From: a virus
DNA length: 42,141 bases
IMG/VR virus record: IMGVR_UViG_3300005617_000097
Location: 1 to 42,141 of that record
Strand: one strand, 5' to 3'
How positions within the stretch are numbered: position 1 is the first letter of the stretch; each line of letters begins with the position of its first letter. Shown here piece after piece: positions 20 to 6,793 of this stretch. Under the pieces are notes generated by a model. It was not told the DNA's origin. It searched no databases and was given only the letters and a program-made list of their open reading frames with translations. Both the position numbers and the translations under genes were made by a program.

Positions 20-30
20 GTGCCGCGTGA
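1..30 (+). CDS. C-terminal end of the NinB-like protein that starts at 41688 (wraps the circle)
   Basis: The frame starting at base 1 encodes a basic tail (EAKKKGRAA) and stops with TGA at 28-30. Joined to 41688-42122 it completes a protein of about 154 residues. The stop overlaps the GTG start of the HNH gene at 27 (GTGA), the same coupling used throughout this operon, which supports the join. Confidence 0.85.
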   Translation, partial: EAKKKGRAA

Positions 31-419
31 GCACGTTCTACAACCCGAACCGCCGCACGCGCCTGAAGCCAGACGTCGACAAGTGGGAGCGGCAGCAGAA
101 GCGGGCCGGTGCGAAGGCCAAGGTCAAACGTGCCGAAGAGGCCACGTGGCGTGCCCTCTCCATTCAGGTGCGCGACCGGGATAAGAACGCCTGCCGTGTC
201 TGCACGTGCCAGACGACGCCGTGGGGGAAGGGTGACCCTCGGACGTGGGGCTGCGCGCACCACATCGTTTACCGATCCGCCGGCGGGCTGGACGTGCTGA
301 GCAATCTGATCTGGCTGTGCCGTTTGTGCCACGACAAGGAACACCGGCACGAGATCAACATCATGGGCAACGCGGAGCGGTTCACCGTGGGCAGCGTGAC
401 GACGGAGCGTGCCTCGTGA
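27..419 (+). CDS. HNH endonuclease-like protein
   Basis: This 130-residue protein starts with GTG overlapping the previous stop (GTGA). It has a basic N-terminus, a CxxC pair at C56/C59, a CAHHIVYRSAGG core with H78/H79, then SNLIWLCRLCH with a second CxxC pair at C98/C101. That is the order of a zinc-stabilised HNH (beta-beta-alpha metal) nuclease. It lies right after the ERF/exonuclease/NinB-like set, where phages often carry a small HNH or junction-processing nuclease. I infer a role in recombination intermediates or packaging; the homing-type HNH genes elsewhere in this genome are unrelated in sequence. Confidence 0.8.
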   Translation: MSTFYNPNRRTRLKPDVDKWERQQKRAGAKAKVKRAEEATWRALSIQVRDRDKNACRVCTCQTTPWGKGDPRTWGCAHHIVYRSAGGLDVLSNLIWLCRLCHDKEHRHEINIMGNAERFTVGSVTTERAS

Positions 420-4105: not shown

Positions 4106-4309
4106 ATGGAGTGGCAACCGATTGAGACGGCACCAAAGGATGACACGCAAATCCTACTGACCGACGGATCGGAAGTCAGTCAAGGTTGGTGGGAACCAGA
4201 CTACGGATGGTTGGGTTGGGAAGTTTATAGGGCCGTTCACAGGTTCACGCCCACCCACTGGATGCCTCTCCCTGATCCCCCTGCGAGCCCACGGAAGACG
4301 GGATCATGA
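4106..4309 (+). CDS. DUF551-like protein (67 aa)
   Basis: The ATG at 4106 follows GGAAGGGG. The protein opens with WQPIETAPKDDTQILLTDG and closes with FTPTHWMPLPDPP, the signature ends of DUF551 phage proteins (WxPIxxAP... and VTHWMPLPxPP). The function of the family is unknown. Its stop overlaps the ATG of the TnpB-like gene by 4 nt (ATGA), so the two are likely co-translated. Confidence 0.75.
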   Translation: MEWQPIETAPKDDTQILLTDGSEVSQGWWEPDYGWLGWEVYRAVHRFTPTHWMPLPDPPASPRKTGS

Positions 4310-5424
4310 TGGCTGAGACGACCCCGGACCGCGCCCGGCTGCGGGCACTGCCTACGATTTGTGTCACCTTAAAACTGCGCCCGACGTGCGCTCAAGAGGC
4401 AACGTTCCGCCGTTGGCTCTGGCACTTGACCGCCGTCCACAACTGGACGATCAAGACAATTGAACGAGAGGCCCAGGCCGGCCGTTACCCGAGCACCTTC
4501 CGTCTCAAGAGTCTAGTCAGCGGTCATAGCGAGCGTATGGCGGTCCCGGCTCGCGCTATTTGCGCTGCCGTCGATACGGCGCACGGCGCATGGCGAAGAT
4601 GCTTCCGCAAGCTAGCTCGTAAACCAAGGTTGCGCGGTCGCCGTCGTCCACTGAACAGCATTGGCTTCTCGCATGGCATCAAGACCATCAGGAACGGTCG
4701 CGTCTCGATTCCTGGTATGGGTCAGGTCAGATTTCATCGACAAGACATTCCCGTAGGCGATTGCGGTTACGCGCGAATCGTGCGTCGTGCGTCAGGTTGG
4801 CACTTGTGCATGTTCGTCAAGGCGCAGCCTCAACCGATCGTGCGCGTTGCCAACGGCGAAGTCGGTATAGACCCAGGATTTTCGTCTCTCTTAACGCTCT
4901 CCACTGGCGAAGTGATCGAGCGAGCGTCAGAGCTATCTAATGGCAGCGTTCGGCTCGCGCAGGCTCAGCGTGGCCGCCGGAAGCGCCTCGCGGCTCGCCT
5001 ACAGGAGCGCATCAGCAACCGTAGGAAGAACCGCAACCATCACATCTCCAGCCAGCTCGTTAGTGAGAACAAGTTCATCGCGTTCTCAACAGACAACCGC
5101 GCTGGCCTAGCGCGTGCTCGATTCGGCAAGTCCGTAGCCGCGGCGGCTCACGGCCAACTTCTGTCTCAGCTTCGCTACAAATGCCTTCACGGCGGTGCGG
5201 AACTGGTTGAGGTTGCCTCTCGCAATTCCACTAAGACCTGTTCAGCGTGCGGCGCCTTGTCTGGGCCGTCCGGCTTTGCGGGCTTGTCGGTCAGGCGATG
5301 GGAATGTTCGGCCTGTGGAGCCGATCACGATAGGGACGGCAACGCCTCTATCAACGTTCTCATTACTGGGCGCGGTTCGCGCCTCAAGAGTGGTCGCGAG
5401 GCCACATCAGGAATCGCATCGTGA
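4306..5424 (+). CDS. TnpB-like RuvC/zinc-finger protein with altered RuvC-II site (possible nuclease-dead RNA-guided protein)
   Basis: 372 residues, full length for IS605-type TnpB/OrfB. The N-terminal RNA/DNA-binding region opens with TLKLRPTCAQEATFRRW. RuvC-I is VGIDPG with D189. RuvC-II aligns ENKFIAFSTDNRAGL (254-268) with the canonical ENxxIxxEDLNVKGM, so the catalytic Glu is replaced by Ser261 and the following Asp by Thr262. The four-Cys zinc finger (C312, C315, C334, C337) and the RuvC-III DRDGNASIN (D342/D344) are intact. No TnpA or IS ends are seen; the ATG overlaps the upstream gene by 4 nt, which argues for an operon member rather than a recent insertion. By analogy with TnpB-derived repressors (TldR) it may bind but not cut DNA; a displaced active-site Glu is the alternative. 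Confidence 0.85.
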   Translation: MMAETTPDRARLRALPTICVTLKLRPTCAQEATFRRWLWHLTAVHNWTIKTIEREAQAGRYPSTFRLKSLVSGHSERMAVPARAICAAVDTAHGAWRRCFRKLARKPRLRGRRRPLNSIGFSHGIKTIRNGRVSIPGMGQVRFHRQDIPVGDCGYARIVRRASGWHLCMFVKAQPQPIVRVANGEVGIDPGFSSLLTLSTGEVIERASELSNGSVRLAQAQRGRRKRLAARLQERISNRRKNRNHHISSQLVSENKFIAFSTDNRAGLARARFGKSVAAAAHGQLLSQLRYKCLHGGAELVEVASRNSTKTCSACGALSGPSGFAGLSVRRWECSACGADHDRDGNASINVLITGRGSRLKSGREATSGIAS

Positions 5425-5507
5425 GAAACACCGCGAAGATCAAGAGACGATCCAGAGGCTGTCTCGCCTCTCTGCGCCAGCGCCTCGCCCCACAGGAGGG
5501 GACGTAG
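5369..5507 (+). ncRNA. Candidate guide (omega-like) RNA region of the TnpB-like gene
   Basis: TnpB scaffold RNAs normally come from the 3' end of tnpB and beyond. Here the last codons hold a 6-bp hairpin at 5369-5374/5378-5383 and another at 5390-5395/5400-5405 closed by a GCGA (GNRA) loop. After the stop an 83-nt gap contains a perfect 6-bp hairpin at 5454-5459/5466-5471. The final part also holds the ribosome-binding site for 5508. The structure is seen; the RNA function is inference, and neither scaffold ends nor guide can be fixed. Confidence 0.35.
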
Positions 5508-6014: not shown

Positions 6015-6302
6015 ATGCCCCTGACGAGAGAAGAAGCGATCGAGCAGTTACAGAAACTCCGCAAGCACATGGCGGCCGGGCTGAAGGGTTGCGTCGAATG
6101 CGATGCGCGTGTCCTTGTCGCGATCGAATTGTTAGCGGAGGGGACGACGCCGCCGGCCTGCGACACCTGTCGGCAGTGGACGCGCTACAAGAAGGATTCC
6201 GATTGGGGAACCTGTGAGGACGGCGTGTCAAGGGAAGACGGCCAGACCTACGCCTTATTCTCATGTTCGCTGTATTGCAAGCGTAAGGAGGCCCAGTCAT
6301 GA
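6015..6302 (+). CDS. Zinc-finger-like hypothetical protein (95 aa)
   Basis: The ATG at 6015 lies 7 nt after the frameshifted nuclease, with GAGGTAGG upstream. An N-terminal helix (REEAIEQLQKLRKHM) is followed by CVEC and by CDTCRQW...GTCED, a Cys pattern common in small phage zinc-finger proteins. The C-terminus has two more Cys. Function unknown. Confidence 0.65.
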   Translation: MPLTREEAIEQLQKLRKHMAAGLKGCVECDARVLVAIELLAEGTTPPACDTCRQWTRYKKDSDWGTCEDGVSREDGQTYALFSCSLYCKRKEAQS

Positions 6303-6793
6303 CCCCGCCTGATCCCCTGTCGGCCGCCGTGGCACGCGCCCTGACGGATGACGTGATTCAGCGCGGTATGGAGAAGTGGCCCGAGCTGCAAGGTGAGCAT
6401 CTCGCGGCCGAGCGTCGGTATCGAATCATCCTGTCGGTCCTCACCGCCCTCGCGCCCGTCATCGAGCAGTTGGAACGGTTGGTCTATGTTGGGGATCATC
6501 ACTTCTCTGACTTAACGTGGAAGAGTAGGTGTGAAGAGGCTAACGCTCGCGCCGAGTCCGCCGAATCGGATCGCGCCGCGCTCCGGGCACGGGTGGAGGC
6601 GTTGGAGCAGAAGTATCGCGAGCGTCTGTGGCTGGGACACGGGCACCTTGGCGTCTACGGCGACGACGGCGAGATGCAGTGTTCAGAGTGCTCGCCGTTC
6701 GGTGCGTGGGACTACAAGCGCGAACCTATCGAGGTATTGGAGTCCACGATTATGAGGGTGGCCGCCAGCCGTATTCGTGAGGTCTCCCGATGA
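6299..6793 (+). CDS. Coiled-coil hypothetical protein (164 aa)
   Basis: The ATG overlaps the previous stop (ATGA). The middle is a coiled-coil (CEEANARAESAESDRAALRA, then RVEALEQKYRERL, residues about 80-120), followed by a CSEC motif. The N-terminal 70 residues are helical. No catalytic motif is seen. It is likely a structural or adaptor protein of the early set. Confidence 0.65.
   Translation: MTPPDPLSAAVARALTDDVIQRGMEKWPELQGEHLAAERRYRIILSVLTALAPVIEQLERLVYVGDHHFSDLTWKSRCEEANARAESAESDRAALRARVEALEQKYRERLWLGHGHLGVYGDDGEMQCSECSPFGAWDYKREPIEVLESTIMRVAASRIREVSR

What the first reader, a model, noticed from the sequence alone, without database searches (positions are those of the whole stretch)
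4306..5424. Lone, operon-embedded TnpB homologue with a lost RuvC-II catalytic Glu: possible phage TldR-like RNA-guided regulator
The TnpB-like protein keeps the RuvC-I Asp (D189), the RuvC-III DRDxN and the zinc finger. In RuvC-II, however, ENKFIAFSTDNRAGL replaces the ENxxIxxEDLNVKGM consensus (Ser261 for Glu, Thr262 for Asp). The codon change (TCA against GAA/GAG) needs at least two substitutions, so it is not a single sequencing error. There is no tnpA, no visible IS end, and a 4-nt ATGA overlap with the gene upstream, which suggests stable use by the phage. TnpB-derived nuclease-dead repressors (TldRs) are established, some of them phage-encoded. I find no Glu at the alternative position used by rearranged TnpB/Fanzor sites (aligned residue Ser305).
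Basis: partly seen in the sequence, partly recalled or inferred. Interest (0 to 1): 0.85.

Follow-up and report, generated by a model that had tools for sequence, protein, structure and literature searches.

The report
Phage TnpB with relocated catalytic acid
This phage gene encodes an RNA-guided DNA-cutting-type protein (TnpB) of a jumping gene that has lost the glutamate normally needed for cutting, but it belongs to a whole family, mostly found in viruses, that instead keeps one invariant aspartate two positions away, so it may still cut DNA with a rebuilt active site rather than being the dead gene switch first proposed.

Summary
In detail: P0001 (4306-5424 +) is a full-length TnpB fold with D189, D344 and the zinc finger, and no Glu at either known RuvC-II position (Ser261 canonical, Ser305 alternative). 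(1) The loss is not private: the window belongs to a well-supported clade of 45 sequences, nearly all viral, that lack both Glu residues; it is sister to the alternative-Glu TnpBs. (2) All 45 carry Asp at canonical+2 (D263), a position that is Leu/Val in the outgroups. In the 42 members that keep D189, D189/D263/D344 are invariant while 261 and 305 drift. (3) A covarying omega-RNA right end lies at 5368-5443, followed by a putative guide (5444-5463), so an IS end is present. (4) Four members sit directly behind a Y1 TnpA; several have IS200/IS605 left-end hairpins, paralogous copies or mini-elements. The clade is therefore a set of mobile elements, not domesticated regulators. I favour a still-active RNA-guided nuclease with a D-D-D site (about 0.5) over a nuclease-dead RNA-guided binder (about 0.35). 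Cleavage is untested, no model coordinates were available, and no guide target was found. The window's nearest phages lack the gene, so it is an accessory insertion.

The parts
4306..5424 (+). tnpB-like gene (372 aa), full TnpB fold
4870..4872 (+). codon of RuvC-I Asp189
   Evidence: D in 42 of 45 clade members, Q in one lineage of three
5086..5088 (+). codon of Ser261, position of the canonical RuvC-II Glu
   Evidence: S/T/N/L in the clade, never Glu; aligns to E278 of ISDra2 TnpB
5092..5094 (+). codon of Asp263, candidate relocated catalytic acid (canonical+2)
   Evidence: D in 45 of 45 clade members, L/V in all outgroups
5218..5220 (+). codon of Ser305, position of the alternative (Fanzor-type) Glu
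   Evidence: S mostly, also P/N/G/C, never Glu
5239..5316 (+). zinc finger C312-C337 (CxxC...CxxC)
   Evidence: cysteines invariant in the 42 members with D189
5335..5337 (+). codon of RuvC-III Asp344
   Evidence: invariant in the clade
5368..5384 (+). omega-RNA hairpin 1 (GGGCGCGGTTCGCGCCT)
   Evidence: covarying helix, 97% of cells paired
5410..5443 (+). omega-RNA 3' end / IS right end: GGAATC-hairpin-GAAGATCAA
   Evidence: motif shared with the clade and with outgroup IS elements; homology with L144 stops at 5442
5444..5463 (+). putative guide GAGACGATCCAGAGGCTGTC (flanking DNA just behind the right end)
   Evidence: position only; no target found
4106..4309 (+). upstream DUF551-like gene, ATGA overlap with tnpB; context, not part of the element
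   Evidence: weak Pfam match just under cut-off, phrog_924

Best explanation
The gene is the tnpB of an IS200/IS605-type element carried by a tailed phage, here without TnpA and without a recognisable left end. It belongs to a clade, found mostly in viruses, that is sister to the alternative-Glu TnpBs and has no Glu at either known place. Most likely steps: the transcript's 3' end is the omega-RNA (shown by covariation and homology). TnpB loads it and uses the bases that follow as guide (inferred from the family). On a matching empty site next to a TGA(A/T)-like motif it cuts DNA with a rebuilt RuvC triad D189-D263-D344, in which Asp263, two residues past the lost Glu, supplies the third acid (inferred, untested). 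Cutting empty alleles would favour retention and spread of the element among phages.
For: Clade monophyletic 100/100, next to alternative-Glu TnpBs. D263 is in 45/45 members against L/V in the outgroups; D189/D263/D344 are invariant in the 42 members with D189, while 261 and 305 vary. The lineage that lost D189 also lost the invariant K-S pair (275-276), as expected where cutting is abandoned; the rest keep both. dN/dS 0.05-0.10. Complete TnpB fold. omega-RNA with 11 of 14 pairs doubly compensated. TnpA directly upstream in L016 and L025 (Pfam/NCBIfam above cut-off) and by motif in L147 and L150. IS left-end hairpins. Two copies with different guides in one phage, mini-elements, and closest phages without the gene.
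Against: The acid at the canonical place is essential where tested (ISFba1 E290A, PMC11061315), and no TnpB with Asp at +2 has been shown to cut. D263 is kept even in the D189Q lineage, so it may have a structural role. It lies just past the end of the predicted strand (255-261), and no coordinates were available to measure the site. The window copy has no TnpA or left end, and no target or empty site was found.
Confidence: 0.5

Rival explanations
1. The clade is nuclease-dead but still an RNA-guided DNA binder. It either regulates its own element's transposition or, in the window, represses a target as a TldR-like factor.
For: Both known Glu positions are empty; RNA and fold are conserved; purifying selection also acts on the D189Q lineage (dN/dS 0.10); phage TldRs exist (PMC13418256).
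Against: D189, D263, D344 and the K-S pair are held invariant in 42 members, which is unexpected if cutting were useless. The clade is mobile with TnpA. Guides differ from element to element. No partner gene or promoter target was found.
Confidence: 0.35
2. The window copy is an inert or decaying passenger: an element stranded in the phage after losing its left end and TnpA.
For: No TnpA and no left-end motif; long end branch (0.54); absent from the nearest phages.
Against: Intact 372-aa frame keeping the motifs invariant in the clade; intact omega-RNA end; the nearest relative L144 is also intact.
Confidence: 0.13
3. The missing Glu is a sequencing or assembly error in a metagenomic contig.
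For: The window comes from a single metagenomic virus record.
Against: The same loss is found in 44 further sequences from dozens of independent contigs.
Confidence: 0.01

Closest known systems
Alternative-Glu (Ealt) TnpBs of IS200/IS605 elements, e.g. L060 (Pseudomonas plasmid, with tnpA), L054, L056
   Same: Nearest relatives in the tree; same RuvC-II to zinc-finger layout; homologous omega-RNA 3' end GGAATC-hairpin-GAGGATGTCAA
   Different: They carry Glu in VNE/VDE before the zinc finger and Val at the D263 position; the window clade has no Glu there and Asp263 instead
Canonical TnpB (ISDra2 8bf8/8h1j, ISFba1 8iaz)
   Same: Whole fold (TMq 0.63-0.74), RuvC-I and RuvC-III Asp, zinc finger, RNA encoded at the gene's 3' end
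   Different: Canonical Glu (E278, E290) is replaced by Ser261; about 20% identity
Fanzor and pro-Fanzor TnpBs (PMC10711439)
   Same: A rearranged RuvC-II; a DPG motif at RuvC-I in most of the clade (DTG or others in the rest)
   Different: They keep a Glu six residues before the zinc finger, which is Ser305 here; IS607-type rather than IS200-type transposase
TldR, TnpB-derived nuclease-dead repressors (PMC13418256)
   Same: Phage-borne TnpB homologue lacking a RuvC acid, guide RNA kept
   Different: No stable partner gene, no shared guide, clade linked to TnpA and IS ends; the other catalytic residues are invariant, not lost

Membership tests
TnpB (IS200/IS605 RNA-guided nuclease family) | TnpB fold with RuvC, zinc finger and family profile | tested here: met
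TnpB (IS200/IS605 RNA-guided nuclease family) | omega-RNA at the 3' end of the gene with guide from the flank | tested here: met
   RNA; the guide itself is inferred by position
TnpB (IS200/IS605 RNA-guided nuclease family) | D-E-D triad, Glu canonical or alternative | tested here: not met
   no Glu at either place in any clade member; Asp263 instead
TnpB (IS200/IS605 RNA-guided nuclease family) | RNA-guided DNA cleavage | not testable with these tools
   needs a biochemical assay
IS200/IS605 element | Y1 TnpA next to tnpB | tested here: met
   met for clade members L016 and L025 and by motif for L147, L150; not met in the window record
IS200/IS605 element | Left-end and right-end hairpins | tested here: inconclusive
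   right end present in the window (5368-5443); left end found only in other clade members
TldR (TnpB-like nuclease-dead repressor) | RuvC nuclease inactivated | tested here: inconclusive
   Glu lost, but D189/D263/D344 invariant in 42 members; activity not testable here
TldR (TnpB-like nuclease-dead repressor) | Exaptation: no transposon signs, stable association with a non-transposon gene | tested here: not met
   IS right end; TnpA and left ends in the clade; contexts and guides vary; nearest phages lack the gene
TldR (TnpB-like nuclease-dead repressor) | Guide matching a promoter or regulatory target | tested here: inconclusive
   no second match above 10 nt from the guide start in the window; 18 exact 16-mers in IMG/VR, none above 19 nt; host unknown

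The most novel reading that the evidence does not exclude
A large clade of IS200/IS605 TnpBs, mostly in viruses, evolved a third solution for the RuvC-II catalytic acid: an Asp two residues downstream of the canonical Glu (D-D-D site), with both the canonical and the Fanzor-type Glu absent, and remains an active RNA-guided nuclease.
Probability: 0.45. Interest if true: 0.7.

Novelty: new variant of a known kind. Interest (0 to 1): 0.52.

Why it matters
If active, it shows that the RuvC site of RNA-guided nucleases can be rebuilt once more, with a shorter acid at a shifted place, and it warns against calling TnpB/Cas12 homologues dead from a missing Glu alone, which is how nuclease-dead relatives are usually spotted. 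It also gives a compact family (about 350 aa) that was not found in the isolate phage and plasmid collections searched. If dead, it would be a large group of mobile elements that keep a non-cutting RNA-guided protein, which would be equally hard to explain by the standard retention model.

Tried and rejected
Sequencing error: rejected, since the same loss is clade-wide. Glu supplied at the Fanzor-type site: rejected (Ser305). Invariant Ser305 as a functional residue: it looked invariant in 17 sequences, but the larger set shows S/P/N/G/C. Guide target in the window or in IMG/VR: none convincing. Empty site in sister phages: the accessory region differs too much; only weak DUF551 matches. My first guess for the RNA 3' end (hairpin at 5490-5503) was dropped once the clade alignment put it at 5443. 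L020/L032 as proof of a moved element: dropped, because the mini-copy is at the same place in both phages. Rfam and tRNA scans of the window found nothing. Spacers of the GCTCA arrays beside the D189Q lineage matched nothing above chance in the loci held. Two key papers (the PNAS 2023 TnpB census and the Nature 2024 TldR paper) are not held, so whether this clade was listed there could not be checked.

Full report
What is there. The ORF at 4306-5424 (+) encodes a 372-aa TnpB homologue. An AlphaFold model built on its own clade (pLDDT 79.7) matches whole TnpB structures: 8h1j at TMq 0.72 and 8iaz at 0.74. Aligned to ISDra2 TnpB, D189 and D344 stand at the RuvC-I and RuvC-III Asp, Ser261 at Glu278 and Asp263 at Leu280. 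The Fanzor-type alternative Glu lies six residues before the first CxxC (PMC10711439); here that is Ser305 (before C312). So the reported loss is real, and complete for both known Glu positions. The surrounding record is a tailed phage with portal, terminase and head genes.

The loss defines a clade. Scans of IMG/VR with single sequences and alignments and one scan of GTDB species genomes gave 45 usable sequences: the window, 42 other viral contig sequences and two MAG contigs, with a few near-duplicates among them. No match of 60% identity or more exists in 50,697 phage records or 72,556 plasmid records. A tree of 18 members with outgroups makes the clade monophyletic (100/100), grouped with alternative-Glu TnpBs of bacterial IS elements and apart from canonical ones (100/99). 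The larger tree agrees and puts L144 (60-61%) nearest to the window.

What replaced the Glu. In all 45 members the residue two places after the canonical Glu position is Asp (window D263; pattern S/T/N/L-x-D, mostly followed by N). In every outgroup, canonical or alternative-Glu, it is Leu or Val. Among the 42 members with D189, 39 of 349 scored columns are invariant at a mean pairwise identity of 55%; D189, D263, D344, K275, S276 and the zinc cysteines are all in that set. Positions 261 (S, T, L) and 305 (S, P, N, G, C) are not. One lineage of three sequences (L021/L182, L022/L183, L191) has Q for D189 and LL for the K-S pair, and shows what relaxation looks like. That lineage still has D263 and D344, which is the main point against reading D263 as purely catalytic. 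Synonymous changes dominate wherever it could be measured (dN/dS 0.05-0.10).

The RNA and the end of the element. The last part of tnpB and the bases behind it form a conserved RNA 3' end: a GGGC..GCCC hairpin, then GGAATC, a second hairpin, and GAGGxTCAA. Of 14 consensus pairs 11 have double compensatory changes; 91% of cells are paired against 70% in shuffles (0 of 500), and sliding the partner by one to three columns drops this to 40-50%. The same end occurs in IS elements of the outgroup, including one with tnpA (L060). In the window it is 5368-5443, and blastn homology to L144 ends at 5442. The next bases, GAGACGATCCAGAGGCTGTC, are the putative guide. A left end was not found.

The clade is mobile. 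A Y1 transposase (IS200 family above cut-off) lies directly upstream of the clade tnpB, on the same strand, in L016/L085 and L025/L084; sequence motifs show the same in L147 and L150. L013 and L043 keep what reads as the last codons of a tnpA in front of tnpB. Left-end hairpins (GCCGCAA...GGTTAGGC) preceded by TGA(A/T) are found for L015, L018, L019, L025, L030 and L043 and for the mini-element in L002. One phage carries two copies with different guides (L013 and L043). Internally deleted copies occur (L030, L032/L052), as does a copy reduced to left end plus omega-RNA (L002:890-1095). In the 15 elements compared every guide was different. The four records closest to the window phage by head protein (74-97% identity) lack the gene.

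How it most likely works. Established for the family (PMC8612924, PMC10278001, PMC11870625, and general knowledge): TnpB binds its own 3' RNA, uses the flank as guide and cuts matching sites, which favours retention of the element. Shown here: fold, RNA, mobile context, selection. Inferred: the third acid is D263. Against this, the Glu is essential where tested (ISFba1 E290A, PMC11061315), and D263 lies just after the end of the modelled strand (255-261). I could not measure geometry, because no coordinates were given. I therefore put an active D-D-D nuclease at about one half, a dead RNA-guided binder at about one third, and a decayed passenger (for this copy) at about one eighth.

Relation to TldR. 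TldRs are marked by RuvC inactivation with guide RNA kept and by exaptation with partner genes (PMC13418256). For the window clade the exaptation features were tested and not met, and catalytic death is undecided. The D189Q lineage L021/L022/L191 (terminase-like gene upstream, ribbon-helix-helix-like gene downstream, both read by eye; dN/dS 0.10) is a better TldR candidate than the window.

Novelty. Rearranged TnpB sites are a known kind (PMC10711439). An Asp at canonical+2 in a clade lacking both Glu positions is, as far as I could check, not described; the 2023 census paper was not available. New variant of a known kind.

Noticed in passing
L021:4998-6107, L022:5001-6107, L191:2-640: A lineage of the same clade that has lost D189 (Q) and the invariant K-S pair but is under purifying selection (dN/dS 0.10) in a conserved place between a terminase-like gene and a ribbon-helix-helix-like gene: a better candidate for a phage nuclease-dead RNA-guided regulator than the window.
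   Followed up: partly
L021:4757-4987 and 6249-6318; L022:4789-4992 and 6335-6413; L191:781-918: Intergenic arrays of GCTCA every 18-55 nt beside that D189Q tnpB (8 copies in about 270 nt; simulated mean 0.3-0.4), with variable spacers: operator sites or an array of short guides? Spacers match nothing above chance in the loci held.
   Followed up: partly
Upstream of tnpB in L011/L153, L015/L172 and L023: A small zinc-ribbon ORF (CxRCGHxWxPR...CPKCxSxYWD) directly in front of tnpB, in L015 between the left end and tnpB, where other elements have tnpA.
   Followed up: partly
L019:6043-6070, L020:6119-6145, L030:5306-5330, L014:6030-6110, L009:815-900: The right end of the element supplies an in-frame start (e.g. 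ATGAGCATCAA) to the downstream gene, as if the element inserts just behind start codons of the ATGA(A) type and restores the start.
   Followed up: partly
L002:890-1095; L030:4833-5316; L032:4850-5144: Non-autonomous mini-elements in phages: left-end hairpin plus omega-RNA only, or internally deleted in-frame tnpB.
   Followed up: partly
window 27-419 and 870-1517: An HNH endonuclease gene and a Dam-type methyltransferase gene lie in the same accessory arm as the tnpB.
   Followed up: no
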